A stretch of DNA of 64,000 nt from contig OX327693.1 of NCBI GenBank assembly GCA_946807835.1, forward strand, positions 10,743,501 through 10,807,500. The letters run 5' to 3'. The notes beneath the pieces are model-generated. The model worked only from the letters and a program-made list of their open reading frames with translations. It did not search any database and had not been told where the DNA came from. The position numbers and the translations under genes were made by a program. The DNA comes from Ailanthus altissimus. Lineage: Eukaryota > Streptophyta > Magnoliopsida > Sapindales > Simaroubaceae. Positions 14,021-62,987 of the stretch are shown in pieces (within the stretch, counting starts at the first letter, position 1; each line of letters starts with the position of its first letter).

Positions 14021-16236
14021 TGTTGGAGTTGTGATTGTGAGGATCGTAAAGATGGATACTAATAAATTGTGTAGTCAAGGTGTGAAGGTCATTGTCGTTA
14101 AATTATTTCTACCTTTACAATGATGATGATTGACACGTTTAGAATATAAGAGTTTATTTTCAAGTGCAGAACTGTCGAAATAATAAATAACCCTGTGAGA
14201 ACGAGGTCGATTTAAAGGGAAGCAGAATTAAAATTACAAACTATAAATACTTTAAAGATAATTAAAGTAGTATAAGATGTTTGCAAATAATAATTCAATT
14301 AATCAATTAAAATAAAAGTTTAGGTTAGGGGGATCCACTCTTGGCATATGAAATATAAATATATTCAACTCTTTTTATAACTCAATTGGAATCCTCACAC
14401 AAAGGAGGTTCCAATCGGAAGATATAACAATTAAAGTTCATCACTATTTATATATTAACTAGTATTTATTTCTTTCAATTATTATACACAAAATCTGTAA
14501 ATGGGTTCAAGTATTTATTATGCCAATATTTATATTTGTCTACAATAATCAAGACTCCCACTTTATAAGAAAGGGTATCTACGCTAAATCTTGTAAATGG
14601 TTTCAAGAATTTATTGTACCAATTATAAAAATTGTTTATAATAAATCAAGATACATCACTTTATAAGAAAAGAGTATTAATATTACAAACAAAATCAATA
14701 CATCATATATAAATTTGCATAACTTAAGAATGAAACATTAAATTCATTAATAAGAGTCAAGTATATCTTATTATATTGCCAAGAGTTTCATCCTTTCAAC
14801 TTAGCAAAAAAAAAAAAGAAAATTACTTGAACATAATAAAACTAAAGAAAAAAAAAGAGATAGAAGAAGAGATAATATCATTTTAGAATGGTAAACAACA
14901 GAAATAATACTACAAAGAGATAATACAAAATGCAAGTATTTTGAACTAAAATCTAACTCTCTAAATACATGCTTTGAGCATAAATAAGCCATCTATTTAT
15001 AGAAGAATATGGACAAATCAAGATAAATAAGAGGAAACCACTTGAATGGTAAAAGTCAAGAAGGGTGGCAATTAATTTGCATTAATTATCATTAATACAC
15101 CACTTGATTATCCAATTTGGAATTGATGTGGTTCGAATTAGTTGTCACTCAAAAATTTCAACTTATAGATAAGTATTTTATATTTTCAAATTTAGTTGTC
15201 TCATGCATATTAGATACGTATTTATATAGTTATAGGCCAAATACTGATGACTGTTCGGATTGGGCTTGTACTGCAGATCAGTTCTGTTCTGGGCCATTTT
15301 TACCCTCTAAATGCTTGAATTTCAAATATTTTGTGAATACAATAATTAGATTTTGTAGTCCATTGACTCAACTCTTCACAAGATAATCACTATAATTAGA
15401 TTCTTAGGTAGAAAGTTAAGCTCATTTTACCGAACTTATCACAAAACAGTTAAAAGCTAATTAGGTACAATATTGTAAACATACTTAAGTTTTGGGGGGG
15501 GGGGGGGGGGGGGGGGGTGTTAAAGACACTAGTAATACAAAACAATGATGTAAAACCCTTGTTAAATGTGTAATTTCAAGTGCTCATCAATGATCAAGGT
15601 GCAAATGGGTTGTGTGGTTGTATAGTTTCAAGATTCAATGACTTTGAATTTATAATGGTGCACACCTATTACAAATTCTGTAGGACTACAAGATTACTTT
15701 AATGAGAGTTAATTAATGGAGAGAATAAAGAAGAGAATGATAGATTGTTTATGTATATCTTAAGAATGAGGTGTGCTTATCTATTTATAGAGGTATTTGT
15801 GCCTCCCTAGAAGGATATAATACCTTTTCAGATCAACACATCGTTTGGAGTAGACACATGCATTTCCAAAGAGTCATGACCTTAGGAAGAGTTGTGTATC
15901 TTTCCATAAGATCATAACCTTTGATTTAAATTGGTGTCTTTCTAAAAGAACACAACTTTTGAAGAGTTAAATGACTCTTCAATAAGTCACATCTTTAACT
16001 CTAATACCATAGCCCATATAATAGGGATAATGGGTATCAATAAAGGGAGGGGTGGTAACCCGTATGGGCGCTGCGACGCTCACATTCTGTCACGGCGCTA
16101 TGCACACACATTGTATTAGGCGCTGCAGCGCCAAGTTTTGGGCCATTTTCTTTTCCCTCTTTTTTACTTTGTCCTCCATCTCTATCAAGTCTTCAACATA
16201 TATGATTAATTTGAAATACTCTTATAATATACAACA
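14021..16236 (-). repeat. 3' LTR of copia element B, split by a solo LTR
   Basis: Pieces 14021-14130 and 15590-16236 join into one LTR matching 26209-26945 (for example both contain gatgatcaaggtgcaaatgg and gtaggactacaagattac). It has a GC-rich tract at 16060-16140 with gggcgctgcgacgc and ggcgctgcagcgcc. A TATA-like tctatttatagag (read on the minus strand) lies at about 15780. Confidence 0.85.
14131..15589. mobile_element. Solo LTR related to the 12-kb Athila element, TSD atgat
   Basis: 1459 bp, starting tgacacgtttagaatataag and ending tgctcatca, flanked by atgat at 14126-14130 and 15590-15594. It is clearly related along its length to the 1438-bp LTRs at 50924 and 61545 but noticeably more diverged, so it is an older copy. 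It contains an uninterrupted run of 24 G at 15494-15517 that the younger LTRs lack. Confidence 0.87.
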
Positions 16237-26208: not shown

Positions 26209-26945
26209 TGTTAGAGTTGTGATTTTGAGGATTGTAAATGGATATTAATAAATTGTGTAGTTAAGGCGTGCAAGGCATTGTCCTTAAACTATTTCTACCC
26301 TCACAATAATGATGATCAAGGTGCAAATGGATGTATGGTAGTATAGTTCCAAGATTCAATGACTTTTGAATTTGTAATGGTGCACACTTATTACAAATTC
26401 TGTAGGACTACAAGATTACTTTGATGAGAGTTGATTGATGAAGAGAATAAAGAGGAGAAGGATAGATTATTTATGTATATCTTAAGAGTGAGGTGTGCTT
26501 CTCTATTTATAGAGCTATTTATGCCTCCCTAGATGGACATAAGACCTTTTCAGATCAACACATTCTTTGGAGTAGACATATGCCTTTCCAAAGAGTCATG
26601 ACCTTAGGAAGAGTTATTTATCTTTCTATAAGGTCATAACCTTTGATTCAAATTGGTGTCTTTTCAAAAGAACACAACTTTTGAAGAGTTTAATGACTCT
26701 TCAATAAGTCACATCTTCAACTCTAATACCATGGCCTATATAATAAGGACAACCACATTCTATCAAGGGCGCTACGACGCCCAGCCATGGGTGTCGCAAC
26801 GCCTAGTCCTAGGCGTCGTAGCCGCCAGTCCTAGGCTATTTTCTTTTCTTTTTTTTTTCTTTCCCCTCCTTTTCACTTTGTCCTCCCTCTCCATCAAGTC
26901 TTAAACACATATGGTTAATTTTAAATACTCTTATAATATATAATA
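26209..26945 (-). repeat. 5' LTR of copia element B
   Basis: 737 bp, tgttagagttgtgat at the left end and ataatatataata at the right, where the partner LTR has atacaaca. A GC-rich tract at 26765-26840 contains ggcgctacgacgcc, gtcgcaacgcc and aggcgtcgtagccgcc. TATA-like tctatttatagag is at about 26502. It is followed by TSD agtaa. Confidence 0.85.
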
Positions 26946-26950
26946 AGTAA

Positions 26951-46713: not shown

Positions 46714-47540
46714 GTGTATATCAGGAACCGTTCCTTATATTTATGTGATATATTTGATGTTTTGTTAGCTGAATGTCAGTTAATACACTATGTTTTAGAT
46801 ACAACTGCAAATATCATGAATGTACTGGGTAACACTAGTAGTAGTTCGGGAACTTTAAATGATACAGAACTGTGGCATATGAGATTAGGTCACATAGGCA
46901 TAAGATGTCTAACCTATCTGGTTAAAGATGGTTGGATACATGATCTGACTATACAACCTTACCCAGTTTATGAATCTTGCATTCAAGGAAAAATGACTAA
47001 ATCTTTATTTACTGATGTTGGACATAATGCCACTGATTTATTAGAACTGATGTATAGTGATGTATGTGGTCTAATGAATTACACTATAATAGGTGGATTT
47101 CGATACTTTGTAACCTTTATCGATGATTTGTCATGATAGGGGTATGTGTTTCTTATGAAGCACAAGTCAGAATCCTTTGTAAAGTTTAAAGAATTCAGAT
47201 TTAAAGTATAGAAATAAATTGGTATGTACGTCAAATACCTTCGATCAGATCGAGGCGGTGAGTACATGAGTAGTGAATTTTCTAACTATTTAAAAAAGAA
47301 TGGGATTCTCACTCAGTATAGTCCTCTGGGTACTCCACAACACAATTGTGTTTCAAAAAGGAGGAATCAAACTTTATTGGATATAGTCTGGTCGATGATG
47401 TGCTTCACCGATTTTTTGAAATATCTGTGGGATTATGCTCTTGATAGTGCTGCTCATATATTGAACATGGTTCCATCTAAAACTGTTCCGACCACTCCGT
47501 ATGAGATGTTGAAAGAAAAGAAACAAAGTCTTAAATAGTT
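46714..47540 (+). pseudogene. copia integrase (element C)
   Basis: Open piece 46714-47136 contains ELWHMRLGHIGIRCLTYLVK (GAG-pre-integrase, H-H of the zinc-binding domain) and GGFRYFVTFIDDLS, the first catalytic Asp region. After a stop, 47224-47538 reads YLRSDRGGEYMSSEFSNYLK (second Asp) and continues TPQHNCVSKRRNQTLLDI, where the catalytic Glu expected at VAER.N is replaced by Ser (VSKRRN). The function is therefore lost. Confidence 0.82.
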
Positions 47541-49478
47541 TAAGATTTGGGGTTGTCCTACTTACGTAAAAGTTATGTAGCAGGATAAACTTGCACCCAG
47601 AGGGTATAAATGCCAGTTTTTTTAGTATCCTAAGAATTCAATGAGTTACAAATTCTATGATCATGGAGAATGAAACGTGTTCATTTCTTGATATGTCACT
47701 TTTCTAGAGAAAAGAGTTTCTCATGGATTGTGGGGGTTGTAGAAAGATTGAGCTTGATGAAGCCAAACAAAACTAGAATGAACTAAAGATGAAACCTCAA
47801 GCTTAATCCAGCAGAATACCTTTAACACAGCTTCTATGTAGGTCGGAGAGGATGTCTAGACCACCTGATGGGTATAGTCAGATCCTTAAAGGTGCGCTTA
47901 GAGTTTTCTTAGTTAAAGAAAATGATTCTTTAACCTATAGAGAGGCGATGTTGGACACCAACCGAAAAAATGGCAAGAAGTCATAAAATCTGAAAATGGA
48001 CTCAATACATTAAAATCAAGTCTTTGACTTAGTTGAGCTTCTCGAAAGAATAGTTTCTATTGGTTTAAATAGATTTACAAGCAAAAGCGTGGGCCTAAGG
48101 AAAATGTGGAGACCTTCAAAAACCAACTAGTTGTAAAAGGGTATACTCACCGATCTGGGATCAATTATGAGAAAAACTTTACACCAGTAGCGATGTTAAA
48201 GTTAATACGAATTTTATTGGCAATTACTGCGTATTATGACTTTTTGATATGACAGATGGATTTAAAGATGGTGTTCCTGAATAGACATCTCGAGGAAGAG
48301 ATATACATAGAATAACCTGAAGGTTTTGCATCCAGCCTAACTGCGAGTCTAGTATGCAAACTAAAGAAGTCAATTTATAGATTTAAGTAGGCTTCCCGAA
48401 GTTGGAATATTCATTTTAATGAAGTAATCAAAGGGTTTGGTTTCATCAAAAATGAAGAGTAACCTTGTGTGTATAGAAAGATCAATGAGAGTATGATAGT
48501 CTTCTTAGTTCTCTATATAGATGACATTCTGATAATTGGAAATGATATAGGTATGTTACACTCAGTTAAAAGTTATCTAAACAAGAACTTTTCTATGAAG
48601 GATTTGGGAGAGGCTTCCTATATATTAGGTATAAAGGTTTATGGAGATAGAGCTAGAAAATTAATAGGACTCTCTCAATCATCGTACATCAACAATGTCT
48701 TAAAAAGGTACAATTTTACTAATTGTTAGATGACTAATGTACCTTCTAGACATGACATTTATCTTTCAAGGAGAATGTCTCCTTAGACGGAAGATGAAAG
48801 AATTAGAATGTCTAAAATGTCATATATATCAGCTATAGGTAAACTGATATATGCTATAATGTGCACTAGACCTAACATCAGCATGGCTGTAAGTGTTACT
48901 AACTGGTATCAATCTGATCTAGGTGAAAACCATTAGATGGTAGTCAAACATACCTTAAAGGTACAAAGGACAAGTTTCTAATTTATGGAAATAATGACTT
49001 ACAAGTCAAAGGATAAACAGATTTAGACTTCCAGTCTGATCCGAATGATAGAAAGTCTATATTTGAATATGTGTTTATCCTAAACGGTGTTGCAGTGAGT
49101 TGGAAGAGCACCAAACAGGGACTTAAAACTGATTCTATAATGAAAACAGAATATATTACAGCCTATGAGGCAACAAAGGAAGCAGTGTGGATACACAAGT
49201 ATATCACTAAACTAAGAAATGCCCTTACTTTGATAGATCATATCCCATTAGTATGATACAATAACAGGACCATAACATAAGCCAAAGAGCCAATGGCACA
49301 CCAGAGATTTAAATATATGGAGAGCAAATATAATATAATTAGAAAGATCTTGGTTAAGGGAGATGTAATAATTTATAGAGTTGATTTTGTAAATAATGTA
49401 GCAAACTTACTGACTAAGGCCTTAACTCCAAAGGTATTTGAGAAACACGCAAAGTTCATGGGTATTAGATACCATTAG
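47541..49478 (+). pseudogene. copia reverse transcriptase and RNase H (element C)
   Basis: RT pieces lie at 48050-48480 in broken frames (FKNQLVVKGYTHRSGINYEK-like, QMDLKMVFLN). The catalytic box is FLVLYIDDILIIGN at 48500-48540, followed by MKDLGEASYILGIKVYGDRA. RNase H: GVAVSWKSTKQGLKTDSIMK at 49086 onward and EAVWIHKYI. The terminal piece 49293-49478 ends VFEKHAKFMGIRYH, a usual copia C terminus. Stops at about eight places make it a pseudogene. Confidence 0.82.
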
Positions 49479-49504: not shown

Positions 49505-50923
49505 TGTTGGGATTTGTGCTTATGTGTCATTCTATTTTGTATAAATATTTTATTTTATAATAAAATAAAATATTTTATTTTGTTTTAGGAATGGTACTAG
49601 AACAAAATATTTTATTTTATTATAAAATAAAATATTTATACAGTACCTTTTATTAAATCACTAATTTCATTAATTAAATAGTATAGTGCTTGTAATGTTA
49701 CAGAAATTGTATGATCTGAAGGAGTTTAGATCTGGCCTAAAAGCTTTTAGACCAGCGCTAAAGGTTAGCAATGCTGAGAATTATAATTGCTAATAGTTAG
49801 CATTACAAAGAGTCAGTAGGTTATAAAAGTCAGCAAAATCTAAAAGTTAAGACCTTGTCTGTAACGGGACATAGACCCGAGAGTACATCAGTAATAACAT
49901 AGTTGTAAGGAGTTGTAATAGGTGCTAAAAAATTTTATTATGCACGTGTATTCTCAAACACAATGTTCCTAGTCTAATTCATAGATGCGGGTCTGTCGGT
50001 GAAATCCTTTATTATAGATCAGTGTATGACCATATCTAGATGGTTTAGATAGTTGTTCTTAACTGACCATAGACTTATCAGAAGCTCGTATGGCATATGA
50101 GTATTCAATAAAGATTGAATACTGAACCGGCTCAATAAGGACCCTAATAGATAACCTATGAAGCTATTAATGGTAGGTCCTCTCAAATTGAGTAATGTAC
50201 GTGGTCCTTTAACCTGAGCGCCATAGTGGGCTTGTGAGTGATCCACCATGCTTTAGTTCTACATATGTCAGAGACCTTTCATAGTCTTACCACTATGTGT
50301 CGTTAGGTATGGTCTGATGCTCATAAAGTTTGGTATGCGCAGATATAGGATTCGTCAGCTCATATGGGTGAGTTGTATATTCGGATACTCCGAGACTGTA
50401 TCTTAGAAAAACTTATGGCTATAAGCAATAAACTTGGAAAATGAGTTTCCCACACAGCTAAACAATATCGCAAAGGTATTTGCGTATATTATTTTTTGAG
50501 ATACATGTCTGGAGATAAGTTCACGAATGAGCGCATGGGAATTTGACGGCGATGATCTATATCCCAACTCCTCTAGGATATAAATAGCAGAAGAATTATA
50601 CGTATGCGATATAACCTCAACTTGTATGGTTTACTGTGCTAATTTGTAATATCTATAATGTGTATATAGGGCGTTGATCATGGATTCACGAAACAGTTTT
50701 GGTTGACAAATCGGGCGTGGACCTAGGAGTCCCGCAACATAAAGTGTACTCATTATGCACTGGGATAGTGTATCAGATTGAATAGTTCAATGTAGTAAAT
50801 TTCAGCAGACCGGACATTTGCTTCAGTATCCCTCAAGATGTGCACATGTCAAGACTTAAGTGCATCAATTAGTTAATAATAGTTGTTCATCAATAGGATA
50901 ATGACACGTCATTGTAGGCTAAT
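49505..50923 (+). repeat. LTR-like region of copia element C (3' side), interrupted
   Basis: Starts tgttgggatttgtgc just after the polyprotein end and a purine-rich aagtgagagtt, as expected for a polypurine tract plus 3' LTR. The right boundary cannot be placed because the 12-kb element inserted at 50924 and no second LTR is in view. It contains a long inverted repeat at 49539-49641. Confidence 0.55.
49539..49641. repeat. Near-perfect inverted repeat (hairpin) with a duplicated loop
   Basis: The arms 49539-49582 and 49603-49641 are reverse complements except for a 5-base difference near the loop. The 20-nt loop contains taggaatggtactaga, an exact copy of 49476-49491 just outside the LTR start. 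As RNA it would fold into a stem of about 39 bp. Confidence 0.9.
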
Positions 50924-52361
50924 TGACACGTCCAGAATATAGAAGTTATTCCCAAGTGCAGGATTGTCGAAGTAATAAATAACCCGATGAGAACGGGGTC
51001 GATCCACAGGGAAGTAGAATTAAAATTACAAATTATAAACACTTTAAAGATAATTAATGCAGTATAAGATGTTTGCAAATATTATTTCAATTAACCAATT
51101 CAAATAAAAAGCTAAGGTTACTGGGATTCACTCTTGGCATAAGAAGTAAGAATATATTTAACTTTTTATTTTTTTATAACTCAATTGGAATCCTCACACA
51201 AAGGAGGTTCCAACCGGAAAATATAGCAATTAAAGTTCATTATCATTTATATATTGATTAGTATTTATTTCTTTCAATTATTATACACCAAATCTTATAA
51301 ATGGGTTCAAGTATTTATTATGCCAATCTTTATATTTGTCTACAATAAATTAAGACTCCCACTTTACAAGAAAGGTTATATAAACCAAGACTTGTAAATG
51401 GTTTCAATAATTTATTGTGCCAAGTATTAAGTTTGTCAATAATAAATCAAGAATCACCACTTTAGAAGAAATGGTATTAATTCTACAAACAAAATAAATA
51501 CATCATATATAAATTTACATAACTTAAAAATGAAGCATTAAATTCATGAATAAATATTAAACATATCTTATTACCTTGCCAAGAGCTTCACCCTTTCACC
51601 TTAGCTTAAACAAAATTATTTGGACATAATAAAACTAAATGAAAAGAAAAGAAATGGAAGAAGAAATAACATGACTTAATAGTAAACAAGAGAAATAATA
51701 GTACAAGGAAATGGATACAAAGGAAAAGTATTTAGAACTAAATTCTAACTTTCTAATTACATTCTTTAGGCATAAACAAGCCACCTATTTATAGAAAAAC
51801 ATGGATAAATTGAGACAAATTTGGAGGGAACCACTTGGTTGATGAAAGTCAAGAATGGTGGCAAAATAATTTGCATTCATTATCACTTGGGCACCCACTT
51901 GCTTATCCAATTTGGAATTGATGTGATCCGAATTAGCTGTCACTTAAAACATAAAAGTTGTAGATAAGTCTCTTATCTTTCCAAATTGAGTGATCTCATA
52001 CGTATTGGATACGTATGTCTATAGTTATGGGCCAAACATTGATAACTGTTCAAACTGGGCCTGTACTGCAGATCAATTCTGTTCTAGGCCAATTTTCACC
52101 CTCTAAACACTCGAATTTCCAATGCTTTGTGAAATACAATATGTTAGCCCATTGAGTCAGCTCTGTACAGGATTAAGAAGTACCTCAATTGGATCTTTAG
52201 GTAGAAAGTTATGCCCATTTTACCGAACCTGCCACAAAACAGTTATAAGATAATTAAGTACAATATTGTAAACATACTTAAGTTAAGAAAATTAAATACA
52301 CTAGTAATACAAAACAATCATGTAAAACTCTTATTAAATGTGTAATTTCAAGTGTTCATCA
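50924..52361 (-). repeat. 3' LTR of the 12-kb Athila element
   Basis: TG...CA ends (tgacacgtcc to gttcatca in plus orientation). TATA box ctatttatag at 51785-51794 (CTATAAATAG on the minus strand). About eight single-base differences from the other LTR, for example at about 51123, 51417, 51902 and 51940. Confidence 0.95.
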
Positions 52362-52370
52362 CACCCCCCA
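52362..52370 (-). other. Polypurine tract
   Basis: The plus strand reads caccccccaa directly after the LTR end, so the minus strand has TTGGGGGGTG abutting the 3' LTR. This is the expected primer for plus-strand synthesis. Confidence 0.85.
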
Positions 52371-53794
52371 ACTGGCTTATTGCTAGTCCCTAGCAATTCG
52401 AGCATAAATAAAATTTGAACACTACCTAAGTATTTCAAACAAAACGTCAGTTTTAAAATCATAATCGCTATAAAGGTTATTTCAATCATAACTTCCAAAA
52501 ATATTTTTGTGTGTGTGTAAATTAAGCCAAAGCCTTCTTACCACAAACCACAACATATATAGCCTTAAAAATGTTCCAAGTAAAAGCCTCAACTCCATAT
52601 CCTTACAGGTGAATAACTTGTTTAATGACTTAGGATTTCACTCATGGAGTTGGAAAACAGATAATCGCTCAAAAAAAAGTTACATTTAAGGACAGACAGA
52701 CAAACTAACATTGATCCAAAGATAGGAAAATCAAATATTTAGAGTCAAACCATTATTGTCAAATGCCAGCTTCAAGACTTTAATTATTTAATGCGAATCT
52801 TACGAATATAGAATTCGGTGATAAGATTGCTTCCTAATGACTTTAGTCTTCTAAAATTGAATGAAGACTTTATTGAACTGAATTGACTTCTTTTCTTTCT
52901 TTTTTTTTTCTTTTTTTCTTTTTAAAATTTTTTTTTTTTACTCTCTTTTTTTTTTTGAAAGACATATGGAATCATTATAACATAAGAGCAATTTATCACC
53001 ATAATACTTTTCTAATTTTTTTTTTTTATCCTTCAGCTAAGCAACCAAATCATTCATCATCCTAAATAATGTCATTCCAAATAAAAATTAACCATTTCAA
53101 AGGATCAATGAAAGTTCGTAAGCTGTTATCTCAAATCTCTCCACTCACTCACAAAAGATATGTGAGTTTAGAAAATAATATGTATACTTAAACATGGAAA
53201 TTCTCTTGGCTATATATATTGAATCATCCATCTTACCACAAGGCTTAGTATTGTTCTCAAGAAATAATTTCAGAAGTTATTCTTTGGTAACCTAAATAGA
53301 GAAAGTGATTTAAACTAAACAATTTTGAAATCATACATCGATAGTAAAGCAAATTTATTTACGCAAGAGTTACCAAAAACTTAAGCAACAAATAATTATA
53401 CATAAAATGCATTAAAAATAAACCAATTAGAATGTGTTTCAAAAGTTTATAATGTACTCTTTACTCTGCCATTCTAGAACTAGAATGCGTCTCAAGAATA
53501 CATAAATGAACATTTTACTCACGCCATTCATGATAATTTTTTTTTTTACATAACAAAGTGATAACAACAACAAAATAAAATAATTAACACTAACATTATA
53601 TATCAACTATCCTCCCCCCAACCAGATTGAGACATTATCCTCAATGTCAAAATATAGAAAGAGTAAAATATAGAAGATATCACCTGAAACATCTTTTATT
53701 GAAAATTAAACCTGCAACAAAATAAAACAAGCCACACAAAAAAAAATAAAACAAGCCACACAAAAAAACTTAAAAATACATAGAAATAGATAGG
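52371..53794 (-). other. Noncoding 3' interior of the 12-kb element
   Basis: About 1.4 kb between the LOG remnant and the polypurine tract with no coding frame. Long T-rich runs on the plus strand (52885-53030) are A-rich in the element's sense RNA. There is an 18-19-base direct repeat around 53735-53765 (aaaacaagccacacaaaaa). The origin of this segment is unknown. Confidence 0.6.
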
Positions 53795-53965
53795 CTACAG
53801 ACGAAGCGTCAAATCTATCCTGCGTTTCTTTTCACTGTTATCAGTATACCAATCTATCTGACTCATTGTTGGATCAGATAGAGGTGTAAAAGCTTGTAGT
53901 TCATCGAGTAACTGATCAACAGTTGAAGCAGAAATGAGGATCTGTCGTGCTGCAGATGAGACGAA
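53795..53965 (-). pseudogene. C-terminal remnant of LOG beyond the premature stop
   Basis: In the same frame as the LOG ORF, the 56 codons after the TAA at 53966-53968 contain no further stop until TAG at 53795-53797. They start FVSSAARQILISASTVDQLL, which corresponds to the conserved C-terminal helix of LOG proteins. With this part, counting from the second ATG, the coding length would be about 217 codons, the usual size of plant LOG proteins. The uninterrupted frame implies that the stop is a recent, single lesion. Confidence 0.85.
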
Positions 53966-54511
53966 TTATTTTTCCACCGCATAGTCAAGAAAAGATAACA
54001 ACCCATTATAAAAACCATCAACGTTTAACAAACCAATGGGTTTTTTATGGATTTGCAATTGTGCCCATGAGACAATTTGAAAAATTTCCTCCAATGTTCC
54101 GAAACCTCCAGGTAGAGCTATGAAGGCATCAGCATTACGAAGCATAAAAGAAATTCGTTCATGCATTGATGATACCTGTAACTCATCCCCAATTGTTTTT
54201 CCTACAATGTCTCCAACAGCTAGAGCTTTTGGTATGATACCCAAAACTCGACTGCCATTATTTTGTGCAGCGGTTGCCACACGTCCCATTAATCCAAGAC
54301 TACCTCCCCCATATACTAAATGAATATTGCGCTCAGCTAACATCTTACCAAGGGTTTCTGCTGCTTCTATAAACTCACTAGTTTTTCCAGGGCTGGATCC
54401 ACAAAAGACACAAATTTTTGTGAATTTACGAGTTGATGATCCTTCCATGATTACACTCACCCTCTCTCTTGAATGATTTTGAGTTTGTACAAAGATGCAG
54501 AAATAATGCAA
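53966..54511 (-). CDS. LOG: Captured LOG-like cytokinin riboside 5'-monophosphate phosphoribohydrolase, truncated
   Basis: LOG enzymes hydrolyse cytokinin riboside monophosphates to free active cytokinin plus ribose 5-phosphate, in cytosol and nucleus. The 181-residue frame has the family features: ICVFCGSSPGK at the start of the Rossmann-like fold, the glycine-rich VYGGGSLGLMG, SMHERISFMLRNADAFIALP, and the diagnostic PGGFGTLEE active-site motif (PGGxGTxxE). The likely natural start is the second ATG at 54448 (MEGSSTRKFTK); 21 extra codons precede it. A TAA at 53966-53968 removes the last 57 or so residues. There is no intron, whereas plant LOG genes normally have several, so it probably came from a processed mRNA. 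It lies in sense orientation between the cysteine-rich ORF and the polypurine tract of the Athila element. Activity of the truncated form is doubtful. Confidence 0.93.
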   Translation of the reverse strand: MHYFCIFVQTQNHSRERVSVIMEGSSTRKFTKICVFCGSSPGKTSEFIEAAETLGKMLAERNIHLVYGGGSLGLMGRVATAAQNNGSRVLGIIPKALAVGDIVGKTIGDELQVSSMHERISFMLRNADAFIALPGGFGTLEEIFQIVSWAQLQIHKKPIGLLNVDGFYNGLLSFLDYAVEK

Positions 54512-54805
54512 TGTATTTATAGAGCCAAAAGGTATTGCAAAGTTAAATCACATGGCTATTGGCTTGAAGTACAAGATTCAATACCTTTTACCAATTTTCA
54601 ATTTGTTAGCTGGAAAAGTCACATGGGTTGTCGGCTTAAAATGCAAAATTTTCAAAAAGGATTATAGGTGGTTGATTATTGAAAAGATATTTGAGTTTGA
54701 AATGAAACATTTAAAAATAACAGCTATAGTAAATATATACAAGTAGTTGTGATTGTGGCTCACATCTTCCTCTGATTTTACGTCCAGTAACGGCTTAAAC
54801 GCCCT

Positions 54806-55354
54806 CTATGGGTCGGGGATAGGCTTCCCATCCAATTTTCTTATAAATTGGCAAACAGGGTCTTTTAAAGTCAGATTCCCGAGACTGTACCGCTCATGTT
54901 CTTTTAGGAATATGTCCCATAATTCATGAATTGCAATATGCACATATCCACTAGGATGCGTCTCAAGAGTCGATAAGATATTATCTAAAGACTCCTTACT
55001 CAGGCCATCCTTAATGAACCTAATTTTATCTTCACGATTTACAGACACCATTCCTAAAGTGCGGCAACGTGTGTTGCAAGTCGTGCGTGCACACTTGTAA
55101 CAAACATTTAATCGTTTTGCTCTTCGTTTTTTTGAAAAAGAGCTTTTACCTAAGCCAGGCATGTAGGAAATTAATGAGTCTGAAAATTCACCTGTTAATC
55201 TAACTTTGGCTTCAATTAACCAACGTAAATCAACAGGTATATTCATAATCATTAATAACCTTAATCTTTCACATCTTGCTTGGTAAATTTTCTTCAAGGA
55301 ATTTTGAGGCAATGAGGGAAAACGCTTTTTCAAATTTTTTAGAATGTCATCCAT
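54806..55354 (-). CDS. Basic cysteine-rich protein, possibly viral nucleic-acid-binding-protein-like
   Basis: 182 residues, complete frame, ATG at 55354 (MDDILKNLKKRFPSLPQNSL), in sense orientation 219 bp after the end of pol and 294 bp before the LOG ORF. The centre (about residues 67-98) is a basic stretch, GLGKSSFSKKRRAKRLNVC, running into CYKCARTTCNTRC, with spacing C-x2-C-x4-C-x3-C. A basic arginine/lysine cluster ending RRA directly before a CxxC zinc-binding motif is the layout of the small cysteine-rich nucleic-acid-binding proteins of carlaviruses and related flexiviruses, several of which suppress RNA silencing. The match is by pattern only. This protein is longer, with about 65 extra N-terminal and 80 C-terminal residues, and its cysteine spacing is tighter. 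It has no signal peptide or membrane segment. It is not the usual Athila env-like protein. Alternative: an unrelated zinc-binding protein of the element itself. Confidence 0.6.
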   Translation of the reverse strand: MDDILKNLKKRFPSLPQNSLKKIYQARCERLRLLMIMNIPVDLRWLIEAKVRLTGEFSDSLISYMPGLGKSSFSKKRRAKRLNVCYKCARTTCNTRCRTLGMVSVNREDKIRFIKDGLSKESLDNILSTLETHPSGYVHIAIHELWDIFLKEHERYSLGNLTLKDPVCQFIRKLDGKPIPDP

Positions 55355-55573
55355 TTTTTTTTTTAAGAAAAGGGGGAAGAAGAGAAGATATCAGTAATTA
55401 TGGGAAACTGACAAAATCGATTTGAAATATCACGGAGTACCGTTATCCGCCGCTTAACCGGGGTGCAAAACAAAACTTTAACAAAACTACTAAATTAACC
55501 TGCAAGTAAAAAAAAAAAAAATGTTAGAAGAAGAATAAATATATATAAATATGTAAATATATAAAAAAAAAGA

Positions 55574-55840
55574 TTAATTGGTCTCGTAACAAGGATCCGA
55601 CAGGAACGTAAATTCTTCATGAAAAGCTTGGTTTTCTAGAAACGGCTTGAGTCTTTGCCCATTTACCTTAAACACATTCCCATTTCTAGGATTTTCAATG
55701 TCAATTGTTCCATAAGGGTACACATGTTTCACAATAAAAGGGCCACTCCATCTTGATCTTAATATTCCAGGGAATATGTGAAGTCGAGAATTATAAAGCA
55801 AAACCTTCTGACCAGTGTCAAATGTTTTTCTCTGAATTTT
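55574..55840 (-). pseudogene. Integrase C-terminal region, shifted out of the gag-pol frame
   Basis: This frame encodes the C-terminal part of Athila integrase: [53 protein letters not shown]. It is separated from the main gag-pol frame by one extra base in a run of eight A (plus strand T at 55837-55844). The gag-pol frame itself ends shortly after, at 55818. The region is otherwise free of lesions, so the shift is recent, a sequencing error in a homopolymer, or a site of slippage. Confidence 0.85.
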
Positions 55841-58800
55841 TTTTATCATGAAAGGCTTTAATTTTAGCTTTATGAATTTTTGAATTCTCATATGCATCAT
55901 TTCTCAATTCTTCAAGTTCATTTATTTGTAATTTACGTATGTGTCCAGCAGAATCAAGATTTTCATTGAAAGTTTTAATAGCCCAGTAGGCTTTATGCTC
56001 AAGTTCCACAGGTAAGTGACAAGGTTTTCCATAAACTATCCTATAGGGAGACATACCCAATGAAGTTTTAAAAGCAGTTCTATAAGCCCACAGTGCATCA
56101 TTTAGTCTTAAAGACCAATCTTTGCGATTTGGGTTTACAGTTTTTTCTAAAATTTGTTTTATCTCCCTATTTGCTAATTCAACTTGTCCACTTGTCTGAG
56201 GATGATAAGGGGTGGCAACTTTATGAGTAATACCATATTTTTTCACTAATGTTTCAAATGGCCTATTACAAAAATGCTTACCCCCATCACTTATAATGGC
56301 TCGAGGGATTCCAAATCGACTTAAGATATTTTCTTTCAAAAATTTCATGACTGTTTTATGGTCATTATGTCGACATGGAATAGCCTCAATCCATTTTGAG
56401 ACATAATCTACTGCAACTAAGATATACGTAAATCCAAATGATAACGGAAATGGTCCCATGAAATCTATCCCCCAACAATCAAAGATTTCAATAACAAGAA
56501 TGGGGTTCAAAGGCATCATGTTTCGTTTTGAAATTGATCCCAACTTTTGACAATTTTCACAAGTTATACAAAATGCATGTGTATCTTTAAATAAAGTGGG
56601 CCAATAAAATCCACACTGCAAGATTTTTGCAGCTGTTTTCTTTGATGAGAAATGTCCCCCACATGCTTCAGAATGACAAAATTCAATAACTTTATTTACC
56701 TCATTGTCGGGTATGCATCTTCGAAATATTTGATCACGACAATATTTAAAGAGATAAGGATCATCCCAATAAAACTTTCTCACCTCCGTTAAAAATTTTC
56801 TTTTGTCTTGAGCATTCCATTGAGGTGGCATTTCTCCTGTTACAAGAAAATTAACAATATTAGCATACCAGGGCATTGTAACAGTAGAAAATAACAATTC
56901 ATCGGGAAAAGAATCATTAATAGGTGTTATTTCTGTTGATGAATCTGGTGTGAGTCTTGATAAGTGATCTGCAACAACATTTTCAGCTCCCTTCTTATCC
57001 TTGATAGTGATAATAAATTCTTGAAGCAATAGAATCCATCGAATCAGTCTTGGTTTTGCATCTTGTTTTGACATTAAGTATCTTACAGCAGCATGGTCAG
57101 TAAATACAATAGTTGAAGAACCAATTAAGTAAGAACGAAATTTGTCTAATGCAAATATTACAGCAAGTAGTTCTTTTTCAGTTGTTGTGTAATTCATTTG
57201 TGCACTGTTTAAAGTTCTACTCGCGTAATAAATTACATAGGATTTACCTTCTTTTCTTTGTCCTAATACAGCACCAACAGCGTAGTCACTAGCATCACAC
57301 ATGAGCTCAAAAGGTAAAGACCAGTCAGGAGATTGTATGATAGGAGCAGATGTTAAGAGGCCAATTAATTTTTCAAATGAATTTTGACACTCTTGAGTCC
57401 ACTTAAATGATACATCTTTTGCTAAGAGGTTACAAAGAGGTTTAGATATAGCACTAAAGTTTTTTATGAACCTCCTATAGAATCCAGCATGTCCTAAAAA
57501 GGATTGGACTTCTCTGACTGTTTTTGGTGGAGGCAAATGTGTAATGAGTTCGACTTTTGCCTTATCCACTTCAATTCCTTTAGAAGATACTATATGTCCC
57601 AAAACAATTCCAGAAGTAACCATGTAGTAACATTTTTCCCAGTTCAATACAAGACTCTTTTCTTCACATCTTTTTAAGACCTTTTCTAAGTTTTCAAGAC
57701 AATTATCAAAAGAATTTCCAAACACAGTTAAATCATCCATGAAAACTTCTAAATAATGCTCAATCATGTCACTAAAAATGCTTAACATACATCTCTGAAA
57801 TGTTGCTGGGGCATTACAAAGTCCAAAGGGCATTCTTTTAAAAGCAAAGGTTCCAAAAGGACATGTGAATGTAGTCTTTTCTTGGTCTTCTAGTGCTATA
57901 GGAATTTGATAATAGCCAGAGTAACCATCTAGAAAGCAATAGTAGGGATGTCCTGCTACTCTTTCTATAATCTGATCAAGGAATGGTAAAGGAAAATGGT
58001 CTTTTCTAGTGGCCAAGTTCAATTTTCTATAATCTATGCACATCCTCCAACTAGATGAGACTCGAGTTGGTATTAACTCACCTTTTTCATTTTCAATGAC
58101 TGTGATTCCAGATTTTTTTGGTACTACCTGAGTAGGACTTACCCACTTACTATCTGAGATCGGATAGATAATTCCTACTTCAAGTAATTTGAGAACTTCA
58201 GCTCTCACTACCTCTTTCATATGTGGATTTAATCTCCTTTGAGGTTGTTGGGAAGTTTTGGCATTATCCTCTAGGTGTATTCTATGTGTGCAAATCAAAG
58301 GATTAATACCATTTATGTCTTTTAAAGTCCACCTAATTGCATTTTTATGCATTTTCAATAATTCAATCAACTTATCTTCTTGTTCACTTGTGAGTGTAGA
58401 AGCGATTACCACCGGGTAAGTTTGTTTCTCTCCAAGAAATGCATATTTCAGTCCTTCAGGCAGAGGTTTTAACTCCAACTTTGAAATTTCGTTCTTTTTA
58501 TCCTCATTTTCTCCCAATTCTTCAAACTTTAGTTTCCATCTTTTATTTTCAATCACCTGTGCACAGTCAAGTAAAGAACATATGTCAGAGATTTCAGGAT
58601 CTAATTGTATATTTGACTCAAATGAATTTATTAAACACATTTCTAAGGGATCGGTAGAACTCCCTTTTTGAATATGATCCTCCACAATCATTTCAATCAT
58701 GTCACCTTCTTCACTTTCATCCTCCTCTTCATATGGTTGCTTACACATATTAAAAACATTGAGTTTAAGTGTCATGTTTCCAAATGAAAGCTTCATTACT

Positions 58801-61007
58801 CCATTCCTGCAATTAATCAAAGCGTTAGAAGTTGCTAAAAATGGACGACCTAAAATAACAGGTATCGGATTACATCCTTTGACAGGTTCTGTGTCCAAGA
58901 CGATAAAATCCACAGGATATATGAATTTATCAACTTGAACTAAGACATCCTCCACTGTCCCTCTTGGTACTTTTATTGATCTATCAGCAAGTAAAAGAGT
59001 TACAGATGTTGATTTTAACTCCCCGAGATTGAGCTGCTGATAAACTGAATACGGCAATAAATTCACACTAGCACCAAGATCAAGTAAGGCTTGTTCAATT
59101 TTATGACTTCCAATAATACATGAAATTGTAGGACAACCAGGGTCTTTATATTTCAAAGAATTATTGTTCTGAAGAATGGCACTTACTTGTTCAGCTAAAA
59201 ATGCTTTCTTTTTCACATTCAGTTTTCTTTTTACTGTGCATAAGTCTTTCAAAAATTTTGCATAAGATGGAACCTGTTTAATAGCATCCAGTAAAGGAAT
59301 ATTAACTTTTACCTGTTTGAAGATTTCAAAAATTTCAGGATTGTGATTCATCTTTTTAGTATTACGTAATGCATGAGGAAATGGGGGTGGAGGTGAAGGT
59401 TTGGTGTTTTCTTCATTAAGTGTAGGTTCAACACTTTCCTTGCCCTTAGAGATTGATTCATCGCTCTCATGAGGTTCAGGAATTTCTTTTTCAACAATTT
59501 TACCACTCCGAAGAGTGATAACTGCTTTAACTTGATCCATGTGTTGGCTTCCTGAACTACATGCATTTGAGTTATGTTGTCCTTTGGGGTTTGGCTGTGG
59601 TTGAGAAGGAAATTTTCCTTTCTCATGAATGTTCAGTGCAGTTGCAAATTTAGCAAGAGTATCTTTCAAATCAGCAAATGTTTGAGCATTTTGAGAATTA
59701 ACAGACTCTTGTTTTTCAATGAATGTATGCAAGGTTTCTTCAAGATTTTTCCTAGGAGGTGGGACATATGGTGCATAACCTTGATGATTTTGAAAGTTTT
59801 GGTGTGGTTGGAAAGGTGGTTGCGAAGCCTGTGCTTGAGTGTCATTCCTCCAACTAAAATTCGGGTGATTTCGCCATCCAGGATTATAGTTTTGTGAATA
59901 TGGGTTATTGTTTGACCATTTGAACGTGTTTAAAACATTGGCTTGTTCATGAAGACATTCCCTAAATGCAGGCAAAGTTGGGCAATCATTGGTAGGGTGA
60001 TCATGGGTTTCACAAATGTGACACACAATTTCTTGAACAGATTTTATTTGACCACTCTTTTTCATTTCTAAGGTTTCGACTTTTCTAGCAAGGGATGCTA
60101 ATTTGGCTTGAAGGTCATGGTCTTCCTTAAGATGATAAATACCCCCACTAGATGTAGTGGTTTGATTTTTGCTAGGTGCCTCACAGGTACCAGCAGTGTC
60201 CCAATTTTGAGCATTTTCTGCTAGTAAGTCAAGATAGTTCATTGCCTCTTCTGGGTCTTTTTCCTCAAATGTTCCATTACACATCATTTCTACCATTTGC
60301 CTAACTTGGGGTGTTAAGCCCTCATAGAAATTTGAGACTACTCTCCATGTTTCAAAACCATGATGGGGACAGGTATTAAGTAATTCTTTATACCTTTCCC
60401 AACATTGATAAAGGGTCTCTCCTGGTTTTTGGGCAAAAGTGGTGATTTGTCTTTTGAAAGAATTTGTTCTATGGGAGGGAAAAAACTTTTTCAGGAATTG
60501 TTGTTGCATCTCGTCCCATAAAGAAATGGATCCTGGCCTAAGGTTTTGTAGCCATGTTTTAGCTTTATCTTTTAAAGAAAAAGGGAAAAGCTTAAGTCGA
60601 ATTGTGTTCATGCTACAATTTTGATCATTATACGTGTTACACACTTCTTCAAATTCTCTTAGATGTAGATAAGGGTTCTCTGCATCTAAGCCATGAAAAG
60701 TGGGTAAAAGTTGGATAATGCCTGGCTTAAAATTAAAATGCGTTGCATCCGGTGGAAAAATTAAGCAAGAAGGTGCACCGGTTCGTGTAGGGTTCATATA
60801 GTCTCTAAGTGTCCTAGGTCGGTTATGGTCATTATGTTGGGACTGATTGTCCCCTGGGTCTATGAGTCCCTCAATTTGATTTTCGCTCATGGTGTTACTT
60901 GGTGAAGAATGAGAAGATGAAGGAGAATCTAACAAATTATCAAAGGAAGTTTTGAAATTACCTTTTACTAAACGATGAGAATTAGGATCTCGAAACCAAC
61001 CGCTCAT
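55818..61007 (-). CDS. Athila-type gag-pol polyprotein (gag, protease, RT, RNase H, integrase)
   Basis: An almost intact frame of about 1730 residues from the likely start at 61007 ([17 protein letters not shown]; an upstream in-frame ATG at 61088 would add a hydrophobic leader). Numbering from the upstream ATG: gag capsid with [17 protein letters not shown] at about 160; zinc knuckle [14 protein letters not shown] at about 350; protease DLGAS motif in [17 protein letters not shown] at about 670; RT with CIDYRKLN at about 1020, [24 protein letters not shown] and the FMDD box at about 1118; RNase H with [12 protein letters not shown] at about 1263 and [11 protein letters not shown]; integrase zinc domain (H, H, CITCENC) at about 1470-1510; core D-D-E in [18 protein letters not shown] and VELANREIK at about 1540, 1600 and 1636. 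All key catalytic residues are present. The frame breaks near its end (see 55837-55844), separating the integrase C terminus. Confidence 0.96.
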
Positions 61008-61190
61008 AAAAAGAAACAAAACAAAATACAATAACAATAATACAAATAAAATATTAAACACGGGTAAATAAAATAAAATATTACACACAAGTAAATAAAA
61101 TATGTAAAACTAAAAGCAAAATAAAGATAAATAATTAGAAGTTAGATTAGTGATGTTAGATTATATAATAAAAAGTTAATAAATAAATAG

Positions 61191-61475
61191 TAGGAGGCTT
61201 AGCCTTCCATTAAAATAAAAAAAAGCGAAAATAAAAGGCGAATAATAAATAAAGTAAAGTACGTTAGGAGGCTCGGCCTTCCATGAAAATTAAAAAAAAC
61301 TAAAATAAAAAATAATAAATAAACGAAATAAAGAGTAGGAGGCTCAGCCTTCCGCGAAAATAAAAACAGAATAATAATAAAGTACGTTAGGAGGCTCGGC
61401 CTTCCATGAAAAAAAAATAAAAAAAAAAAAACGAATAATAAATAACAAGTAGGAGGCTCAGCTTTCCATGAAAAT
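61191..61475 (-). repeat. Five hairpin-forming repeats in the retrotransposon leader
   Basis: Copies start at 61191, 61265, 61336, 61388 and 61450, with the core taggaggctcggccttccat (variants at a few sites) separated by A-rich spacers of variable length. On the sense RNA each core reads roughly ATGGAAGGCCGAGCCTCCTA, where AGGC can pair with GCCT and GG with CC around a short CGA loop. They lie between the primer-binding site and gag. They also produce a spurious repetitive minus-strand ORF at 61199-61699. Confidence 0.88.
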
Positions 61476-61521
61476 AAAATAAACAAACAAACAATAACAA
61501 AACAAAATATTAATGTTACCT

Positions 61522-61538
61522 CCCCGGCAACGGCGCCA
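61522..61538 (-). other. Primer-binding site, perfect match to tRNA-Asp
   Basis: The plus strand reads ccccggcaacggcgcca, identical over 17 nt to the 3' end of plant tRNA-Asp(GUC) including CCA. It is 6 nt from the end of the 5' LTR (61545). tRNA-Asp priming is typical of Athila elements. Confidence 0.93.
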
Positions 61539-61544
61539 AAAACT

Positions 61545-62982
61545 TGACACGTCCAGAATATAGAAGTTATTCCCAAGTGCAGGATTGTCGAAGTAATAAA
61601 TAACCCGATGAGAACGGGGTCGATCCACAGGGAAGTAGAATTAAAATTACAAATTATAAACACTTTAAAGATAATTAATGCAGTATAAGATGTTTGCAAA
61701 TATTATTTCAATTAACCAATTCAAATAAAAAGCTAAGGTTACGGGGATTCACTCTTGGCATAAGAAGTAAGAATATATTTAACTTTTTATTTTTTTATAA
61801 CTCAATTGGAATCCTCACACAAAGGAGGTTCCAACCGGAAAATATAGCAATTAAAGTTCATTATCATTTATATATTGATTAGTATTTATTTCTTTCAATT
61901 ATTATACACCAAATCTTATAAATGGGTTCAAGTATTTATTATGCCAATCTTTATATTTGTCTACAATAAATTAAGACTCCCACTTTACAAGAAAGGTTAT
62001 ATAAACCAAGACTTGTAAATGGTTTCAATAATTTATTATGCCAAGTATTAAGTTTGTCAATAATAAATCAAGAATCACCACTTTAGAAGAAATGGTATTA
62101 ATTCTACAAACAAAATAAATACATCATATATAAATTTACATAACTTAAAAATGAAGCATTAAATTCATGAATAAATATTAAACATATCTTATTACCTTGC
62201 CAAGAGCTTCACCCTTTCACCTTAGCTTAAACAAAATTATTTGGACATAATAAAACTAAATGAAAAGAAAAGAAATGGAAGAAGAAATAACATGACTTAA
62301 TAGTAAACAAGAGAAATAATAGTACAAGGAAATGGATACAAAGGAAAAGTATTTAGAACTAAATTCTAACTTTCTAATTACATTCTTTAGGCATAAACAA
62401 GCCACCTATTTATAGAAAAACATGGATAAATTGAGACAAATTTGGAGGGAACCACTTGGTTGATGAAAGTCAAGAATGGTGGCAAAATAATTTGCATTCA
62501 TTATCACTTGGGCACCCACTTGATTATCCAATTTGGAATTGATGTGATCCGAATTAACTGTCACTTAAAACATAAAAGTTGTAGATAAGTCTCTTATCTT
62601 TCCAAATTGAGTGATCTCATACGTATTGGATACGTATTTCTATAGTTATGGGCCAAACATTGATAACTGTTCAAACTGGGCCTGTACTGCAGATCAATTC
62701 TGTTCTAGGCCAATTTTCACCCTCTAAACACTCGAATTTCCAATGCTTTGTGAAATATAATATATTAGCCCATTGAGTCAGCTCTGTACAGGATTAAGAA
62801 GTACCTCAATTGGATCTTTAGGTAGAAAGTTATGCCCATTTTACCGAACCTGCCAAAAAACAGTTATAAGATAATTAAGTACAATATTGTAAACATACTT
62901 AAGTTAAGAAAATTAAATACACTAGTAATACAAAACAATCATGTAAAACTCTTATTAAATGTGTAATTTCAAGTGTTCATCA
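61545..62982 (-). repeat. 5' LTR of the 12-kb Athila element
   Basis: 1438 bp, identical in length to the 3' LTR. It should carry the promoter for the genomic RNA (TATA box at 62406-62415). Followed by TSD ctaat. Confidence 0.95.
62406..62415 (-). promoter_or_regulatory. LTR TATA box
   Basis: The plus strand reads ctatttatag, giving CTATAAATAG on the minus strand, a canonical plant TATA box. The transcription start would be expected about 30 bp downstream, near 62375. The same box is present in the 3' LTR (51785-51794) and, as tctatttatag, in the older solo LTR near 14990. Confidence 0.7.
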
Positions 62983-62987
62983 CTAAT

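What the first reader, a model, noticed from the sequence alone, without database searches (positions are those of the whole stretch)
53795..55354. A young Athila retrotransposon carries a hormone-activating enzyme (LOG) and a viral-suppressor-like protein in place of env
Seen: two sense-strand ORFs lie between pol and the polypurine tract of an LTR element whose ends, TSD and primer-binding site are all identified, so both are inside the mobile unit. One is an unmistakable LOG. The other is a basic CxxC protein with a carlavirus-like core. Known: LOG makes active cytokinin and promotes meristem activity; cysteine-rich flexivirus proteins can suppress silencing. Inference: the pair could act as an accessory cassette, keeping host cells dividing and weakening small-RNA defence, which would favour germline transposition. 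I know of no described retrotransposon with this combination.
Basis: partly seen in the sequence, partly recalled or inferred. Interest (0 to 1): 0.92.

Follow-up and report, generated by a model that had tools for sequence, protein, structure and literature searches.

The report
Retrotransposon carrying plant and virus-like genes
A plant jumping gene present in many copies carries two extra genes, one for a cytokinin-activating enzyme and one resembling plant-virus RNA-binding proteins, and comparison of element families shows that natural selection kept both, so they probably help the element.

Summary
A 12,059-bp minus-strand Ty3/gypsy (Athila-type) element (50924-62982; 1438-bp LTRs, 8 differences; TSD CTAAT) carries, sense to pol, a 182-aa cysteine-rich protein (CRP, 54806-55354) and a LOG gene (53795-54448). 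This copy is broken: LOG has a premature stop, shared by 6 of 67 other aligned copies, and pol has a late frameshift.

Of 70 CRP copies read from the same genome, 69 have LOG sequence beside CRP. A second, diverged family (CRP ~75%, LOG ~65% identical) has CRP then LOG in 20 of 20 copies checked. Between families dN/dS is about 0.2 (CRP) and 0.12-0.13 (LOG). Within the young family change is near neutral.

CRP passes Pfam's cut-off for flexivirus Viral_NABP and has 547 database matches at E <= 0.1. New here: a ~150-nt block across the CRP stop codon with very little synonymous change, and a TATA block upstream of LOG in both families.

LOG in gypsy-type elements was already in print; the CRP, the pairing and the block did not turn up in my literature searches. 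Silencing suppression and cytokinin action remain inference.

The parts
61545..62982 (-). 5' LTR, 1438 bp
   Evidence: 99.44% identical to the 3' LTR; exact ends and 8 differences
50924..52361 (-). 3' LTR, 1438 bp
50919..50923 (.). target-site duplication CTAAT; the other copy is 62983-62987
61521..61538 (-). primer-binding site TGGCGCCGTTGCCGGGGA (tRNA-Asp type: label recalled, no call names the tRNA)
   Evidence: the same 18 bases occur in one second-family copy (L114)
55818..61088 (-). gag-protease-RT-RNase H-integrase ORF (true start not determined); frame lost before the integrase C-terminus
   Evidence: Pfam Retrotrans_gag, Asp_protease_2, RVT_1, RT_RNaseH, Integrase_H2C2, rve
55574..55900 (-). 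integrase C-terminal stretch in another frame; continuous with pol in L001
55500..55521 (-). putative splice acceptor upstream of the CRP; last intron base 55500
   Evidence: top of 222 YAG sites in the element by a simple score of my own; 3 of 200 shuffles have a site scoring as high; in L001 the top site of 45 also lies just upstream of CRP
55391..55462 (-). conserved non-coding block upstream of the CRP ATG (contains GGCGGATAACGGTACTCCGTGA, 55430-55451)
   Evidence: window vs L001; also in L095 and L096 of the second family, its upstream half absent in L098
54806..55354 (-). CRP: 182-aa basic cysteine-rich protein, Viral_NABP family, intact here
54733..54883 (-). conserved ~150-nt block straddling the CRP stop codon, candidate cis-element
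   Evidence: synonymous divergence 0.07-0.15 in codons 161-180 against 0.35-0.95 in the first 100 codons, three pairs; the part after the stop is almost invariant among families
54514..54521 (-). TATAAATA in a conserved block CTCTATAAATACA, putative core promoter of LOG
   Evidence: the same 13 bases, with TATAAATA 73 nt upstream of the LOG ATG here and 60 nt upstream in three second-family copies
53795..54448 (-). LOG gene without introns; in-frame stop at 53966-53968 truncates it in this copy
52362..52376 (-). polypurine tract (GTTGGGGGGT) next to the 3' LTR
   Evidence: sequence

Best explanation
This is a multi-copy Athila-type lineage with a 3' accessory module kept by selection. Shown: CRP and LOG sit between pol and the 3' LTR in the window element and side by side in two diverged families of one genome; CRP without LOG follows pol in a third family; both genes were under purifying selection between families; a conserved block overlaps the CRP stop codon; a TATA block lies upstream of LOG. 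Inferred: CRP is made from a spliced subgenomic RNA and acts as an RNA-binding protein that protects the element's RNA from small-RNA silencing, as its flexivirus relatives can; the conserved block is a cis-acting RNA signal of the element. Inferred: LOG is transcribed from its own promoter and raises active cytokinin in the host cell, favouring dividing cells. Copies that lost one gene could still be mobilised in trans by intact copies.
For: Linkage and copy number: all 150 scored CRP matches in the same genome are full length and 98-100% identical, 139 without a stop; these are the best of 4891 first-look candidates. Of 70 copies read, LOG is uninterrupted in 46, has an inner stop in 9, a frameshift in 13, is partial in 1 and absent from the stretch in 1. 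Second family: CRP then LOG in 5 of 5 loci found through LOG, and LOG at the site in 15 of 15 copies found through CRP, uninterrupted in 13. Selection: dN/dS between families 0.205 for CRP window-L096 (bootstrap 0.12-0.33) and 0.12-0.13 for four LOG pairs (upper bounds 0.20-0.23); one pair of each gene read in the two wrong frames gives 0.91-2.65. CRP against L001: 0.219; pol of the same pair 0.088. Viral kinship: Viral_NABP above cut-off in the window, L001, L096 and L098; 95 of 120 database relatives match it at E <= 0.001; 24 of the 32 BFVD fold matches are named flexivirus proteins (virus families recalled). Conserved block. It is no mutation cold spot: 11 of the first 70 sites from the stop on are polymorphic in young copies against 46 of 288 in the rest of the spacer.
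Against: No expression, binding or hormone data. Within the young family both genes look near neutral: LOG singletons N64/S25, shared N29/S5; CRP singletons N50/S21, shared N14/S10; neutral expectation about 2.5:1. Shared stops: the window's LOG stop is in 7 of 68 rows, four further LOG stops in 2 to 4 rows each, and CRP stops at codon 81 in 4 and codon 146 in 2 of 74 rows, so neither intact gene was needed in cis for every insertion. L001 has CRP but no LOG. The Cys motif that I looked for is complete in 96 of 120 CRP relatives, not all. No single fold match is significant (best E 0.086; model pLDDT 69.7, pTM 0.39); PDB gave none. The splice donor after the PBS is not shared by the one second-family leader read. 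LOG dS is near saturation, so its exact ratio is uncertain and the lower bootstrap bound is 0 for that reason.
Confidence: 0.62

Rival explanations
1. CRP is mainly a post-transcriptional regulator or packaging factor of the element itself: it binds the conserved block at its own 3' end and controls export, splicing or packaging of the full-length RNA, in the manner of retroviral Rev and RRE (analogy recalled). Silencing suppression would be secondary or absent.
For: A block with very little synonymous change overlaps the CRP 3' end and continues beyond the stop in three families. The best-scoring splice acceptor precedes CRP in the window element and in L001. CRP has a basic KKRRAKR stretch followed by a C-x2-C-x4-C-x3-C motif (sequence).
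Against: Folding of the whole 171-nt block is not better than shuffles (z -0.4 to -1.2); only the last 85 nt fold somewhat better (z -2.1, 6 of 200 shuffles as good), with one compensatory pair. The Cys motif is complete in 96 of 120 relatives. No binding evidence.
Confidence: 0.22
2. LOG was captured repeatedly and independently from host LOG genes, so the low dN/dS reflects host constraint before capture; inside elements it is passenger DNA.
For: Near-neutral variation and frequent stops within the young family. L001 has no LOG. Host LOG clades other than LOG3-type and AtLOG8 were not sampled, and the tree is a quick one that warns of long branches.
Against: Same place and orientation in both families, a shared CTCTATAAATACA block before the ATG, and no introns. 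The window LOG and 45 of its 120 nearest database relatives fall apart from 25 LOG3-type host proteins (SH-aLRT 98). 43 of those 120 relatives are Reevesia proteins on many chromosomes, as expected of elements; that they lie in elements was not checked.
Confidence: 0.13
3. The flexivirus resemblance of CRP is convergence of a basic stretch plus a zinc finger rather than common descent.
For: The Pfam score is modest (31.7 to 34.2 bits) and the fold matches are individually weak.
Against: The window match spans 87 residues, not only the finger; CRPs of three families pass the cut-off; 24 of 32 fold matches are named flexivirus proteins.
Confidence: 0.12
4. Both ORFs are recently captured junk that spreads only because the element spreads.
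For: Near-neutral variation and shared stops within the young family.
Against: Between-family dN/dS far below 1 with wrong-frame controls near or above 1; 547 CRP matches at E <= 0.1, the listed 120 at 58-87% identity apart from the window's own entry.
Confidence: 0.04

Closest known systems
Gypsy/Athila-like elements with a LOG-like extra ORF (Steinbauerova et al. 2011: abstract recalled; the DOI that I recalled is not held; cited in PMC9289625 section 12, read)
   Same: LOG/YgdH domain inside LTR retrotransposons of Citrus and Populus
   Different: The section that I read mentions no virus-like CRP partner, selection on LOG, internal promoter block or conserved cis-element
Carlavirus/betaflexivirus nucleic-acid-binding cysteine-rich proteins (Pfam Viral_NABP PF05515, Carla_C4 PF01623), e.g. 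chrysanthemum virus B p12 (PMC7588395, abstract and passages)
   Same: Basic stretch plus Cys motif; Viral_NABP gathering score met
   Different: Encoded by an integrated LTR retrotransposon after pol; 182 aa with conserved N- and C-terminal regions beyond the profile match; activity untested
Orchid Ty3/gypsy elements with an AlkB RNA-demethylase ORF (PMC9289625, section 12 and passages)
   Same: A retained extra ORF in a gypsy element whose domain also occurs in flexiviruses
   Different: Other domain, found only in two Phalaenopsis species in that screen
Athila env-like ORFs / ATHILA ORF-1 PF03078 (found in 16% of Athila elements, PMC6317226 passage)
   Same: Position between pol and the 3' LTR
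   Different: No PF03078 match for CRP or LOG

Membership tests
LTR retrotransposon, Ty3/gypsy | two LTRs, TSD, PBS, PPT and gag-PR-RT-RH-IN order | tested here: met
Athila clade (against Tat) | no additional RNase H domain (the mark of Tat, PMC6317226 passage) | tested here: met
   Pfam finds only the RT-linked RNase H
Athila clade (against Tat) | RT places with Athila in a phylogeny | not tested
   No reference RT set was used; the name rests on layout, PBS and recall
LONELY GUY phosphoribohydrolase | PGGxGTxxE motif and the conserved Arg (role recalled) | tested here: met
   PGGFGTLEE is in the window ORF; the motif is in 109 of the 120 nearest relatives, and R98 (P0121 numbering) is at least 97% identical
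LONELY GUY phosphoribohydrolase | full-length protein (~215 aa) | tested here: not met
   The window copy stops after 160 codons; 46 of 70 sister copies are uninterrupted
LONELY GUY phosphoribohydrolase | cytokinin riboside monophosphate hydrolysis | not testable with these tools
   needs an enzyme assay
Viral_NABP (PF05515) | curated gathering score of 23 bits | tested here: met
   window 31.7, L001 34.2, L096 33.2, L098 33.5 bits
Carla_C4 (PF01623) | curated gathering score of 20.9 bits | tested here: inconclusive
   window 18.3 and L001 19.8 below; L096 27.5 and L098 28.5 above
Viral_NABP (PF05515) | encoded by a flexivirus genome | tested here: not met
   lies inside an LTR element
RNA silencing suppressor | suppression of small-RNA silencing | not testable with these tools
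   needs a bench assay

The most novel reading that the evidence does not exclude
A plant retrotransposon lineage and flexiviruses share an RNA-binding counter-defence gene. In the element it is a conserved gene with its own cis-acting RNA signal at its 3' end, and it is joined to a separately promoted cytokinin-activating enzyme, so that the element carries an anti-silencing and cell-proliferation module comparable to a virus's accessory genes.
Probability: 0.33. Interest if true: 0.92.

Novelty: new variant of a known kind. Interest (0 to 1): 0.74.

Why it matters
How plant retrotransposons escape small-RNA silencing is a long-standing question, and few are known to encode a recognisable counter-defence candidate (recalled). 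This element family offers one related to proteins with reported suppressor activity, in many intact copies and with a sequence-level sign of a cis-acting target. It also turns the known LOG curiosity into a selected gene with a promoter-like block, and it links plant retroelements to flexiviruses through a shared gene.

Tried and rejected
Rejected: assembly error (the TSD and 69 of 70 other copies argue against it). Rejected: recent passive capture (between-family dN/dS). Rejected: LOG required in cis for every recent jump (shared stop). Not upheld: one splice donor after the PBS shared by the families (absent in the one second-family leader read). Not upheld: a strongly folded RNA across the whole conserved block.

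Led nowhere: IMG/VR scans with CRP, the CRP alignment, LOG and an 18-mer of the conserved block (no relative). Rfam at E <= 1 on 52000-56000: nothing. PDB by sequence and by fold for CRP: nothing. The copies with the LOG stop do not form a group on the flanking tree, which is poorly resolved (6 changes; shuffled mean 6.8; 108 of 500 shuffles as low).

Rows dropped: L010, L049 and L057 from the LOG and spacer variation counts. From the CRP count, 15 of the 70 CRP-ranked loci whose LOG was not full length, L076 (no CRP match) and, L091 (83-nt match only); the first CRP count still held L091 and is superseded. Loci were ranked by CRP identity, which biases CRP counts low in nonsynonymous changes; the added LOG-ranked copies were chosen because they were outside the CRP list, which biases the other way. 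The 30-codon end window was chosen after looking at the sequences. The LOG trees used 45 of the 120 nearest relatives and 25 or 9 of 120 LOG3-type proteins; the label 'TE' on the former was mine.

Literature: 10 searches of PMC open-licence papers. Eight bear on retrotransposons or these Pfam names; two searches were about the virus proteins. None of their listings showed a CRP/NABP-LOG pair in a retrotransposon; subscription papers and supplements are not covered. Papers seen: PMC9289625 (section 12 and passages); PMC7264820, PMC11728184, PMC6317226, PMC13317346, PMC7588395 and PMC3136472 (passages); all others as listings only.

Full report
Element and its state. The unit is 50924-62982 on the minus strand: LTRs of 1438 bp with 8 differences (4 transitions, 4 transversions; K2P 0.0056, about 0.2-0.4 My at 1.3e-8 to 7e-9 per site per year, rates recalled), CTAAT on both sides, PBS and PPT present. 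gag-protease-RT-RNase H-integrase domains are found. No second RNase H was found, which fits Athila rather than Tat (PMC6317226 passage). This copy carries two lesions: the end of pol is in a different frame (continuous in L001), and LOG has an in-frame stop at 53966-53968.

The two extra genes. CRP (182 aa) passes the Pfam cut-off for Viral_NABP (31.7 against 23 bits); Carla_C4 is just below its own (18.3 against 20.9). It has 547 matches at E <= 0.1 among 608 candidates, of which the best 120 are listed; those listed with an organism come from Xanthoceras, Acer, Populus and Rhamnella. Of these 120, 95 match Viral_NABP and 90 Carla_C4 at E <= 0.001, and 96 have the complete Cys motif that I looked for. 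The predicted fold is of moderate quality (pLDDT 69.7, pTM 0.39). Against viral models, 24 of its 32 matches are named flexivirus proteins (families recalled), 11 of them labelled RNA silencing suppressor by their depositors, but none has E below 0.08. LOG matches Arabidopsis LOG3 (2a33) at 198 bits. It has no introns in a frame of 217 codons apart from the stop. The nearest database LOG, P0121, is 98% identical over the part before the stop and runs on to full length.

Copies in the same genome. The window's assembly has 939 Mb in 37 contigs. A CRP search had 4891 first-look candidates; all 150 that were scored are full length at 98-100% identity, 52 of them (the window's included) at 100%, and 139 without a stop. 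LOG had 6308 first-look candidates, of which 150 were scored, at 92-95% identity to P0121. First-look counts are not copy numbers, and the scored ones are the best. I read 70 CRP copies, 30 cut out by the search and 40 picked from its list. LOG is uninterrupted in 46, has an inner stop in 9, a frameshift in 13, is partial in 1, and is missing in 1, L010. On L010's contig a LOG lies 10.7 kb further on with no CRP just before it (L076), as expected if an insertion split the element.

A second family. Searching with a host-type LOG3 protein also returned LOGs of another kind. The five of these loci that I read hold a CRP about 72-76% and a LOG about 63-65% identical to the window family, in the same order; CRP is free of stops in 3 of the 5 and LOG in 4 of the 5. 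Fifteen further copies, picked from a CRP list of 150, all have LOG at the expected site, 13 uninterrupted.

A third family without LOG. L001, a 3330-bp contig filed under a bacterial MAG and by its content plant DNA, has the end of pol, an intact CRP (77%) and no LOG. So CRP can be kept without LOG. Whether L001's lineage lost LOG or never had it is not resolved.

Selection. Between families, dN/dS of CRP is 0.205 for window-L096 (0.12-0.33), 0.200 for window-L098, 0.219 for window-L001 and 0.198 for L001-L096. Four LOG pairs give 0.120-0.133 (upper bounds 0.20-0.23), with dS near saturation. One pair of each gene read in the two wrong frames gives 0.91-2.65. pol of the window-L001 pair is 0.088. 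The LOG part after codon 160 seems constrained too (0.17, 0-0.44; 55 codons), which suggests, without proving, that the truncated LOG is impaired. Within the young family no selection is visible: LOG singletons N64/S25 and shared N29/S5; CRP singletons N50/S21 and shared N14/S10; about 2.5:1 expected. The window's LOG stop is in 7 of 68 rows, four other LOG stops are shared by 2 to 4 rows, and CRP stops at codons 81 and 146 are shared by 4 and 2 of 74 rows. So copies without a working gene also spread, or were helped by others.

Signals around the genes. By a simple score of my own, the highest of 222 YAG sites in the element lies at 55500, before CRP; 3 of 200 shuffles reach that score; the top site of L001 (of 45) also lies just before CRP. 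The donor after the PBS is not present in the one second-family leader that I read. A block upstream of the CRP ATG is conserved in the three families, though only half of it is left in L098. Across the CRP stop lies the strongest signal. Synonymous divergence per site is 0.35-0.95 in 20-codon blocks of the first 100 codons, 0.28-0.53 in codons 101-160, 0.07-0.15 in codons 161-180, and 0 in the last two codons, in three pairs. In the last 30 codons it is 0.198 pooled against 0.496 overall, and 5 of 10,000 random 30-codon sets are as low; the window was chosen after looking. From the last codon on, 72 of 75 alignment columns between window and L098 are identical (two of the misses are slice ends), while the spacer behind averages about 40%. 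In the young copies the first 70 nt from the stop on vary like their surroundings (11 of 70 against 46 of 288 sites), so the between-family conservation is not a low mutation rate. RNA structure is only suggested: z -2.1 for the last 85 nt, one compensatory pair, and no clear excess stability for the whole block. Upstream of LOG the window and three second-family copies share CTCTATAAATACA, with TATAAATA 73 and 60 nt before the ATG; apart from one in each LTR it is the only TATAAATA on the element's sense strand. It reads as a core promoter.

Reading. An old accessory module is maintained by selection over the time that separates families. Its exact work is inference. [quoted passage not shown] The conserved block at its own 3' end makes a regulator or packaging role a serious rival. 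LOG as a cytokinin activator rests on its motif and on uninterrupted sister copies.

What is known. The LOG domain in LTR elements of two Citrus species and Populus is in print (PMC9289625, section 12), as are extra ORFs in Athila in general (PMC11728184 and PMC6317226, passages). I found no report of the CRP, the pair or the conserved block in the listings of ten searches, eight of them on point, which cover open-licence papers only.

Noticed in passing
54733-54883: Very little synonymous change at the CRP 3' end, continuing into near-invariant non-coding sequence, in three families.
   Followed up: partly
54514-54521: TATA block upstream of LOG shared by two diverged families: a candidate internal promoter inside an LTR element.
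   Followed up: partly
14130-15589: A third LTR of the same kind, about 81.5% identical to both LTRs; the sequences on either side match a continuous stretch near 26209-26946, as expected of a solo LTR inserted into another repeat.
   Followed up: partly
53600-53640: A second PPT-like run (GGTTGGGGGGAGG) about 1.2 kb before the real PPT, with a similar motif in L001.
   Followed up: no
46714-48729: ORF pieces that look like a decayed copia element (recognised by eye).
   Followed up: no
L001 1-3330: A contig filed under a Nomurabacteria MAG carries what looks like plant retrotransposon DNA, probably contamination.
   Followed up: partly
61167-61501: Imperfect repeats in the leader just inside the 5' LTR.
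   Followed up: no
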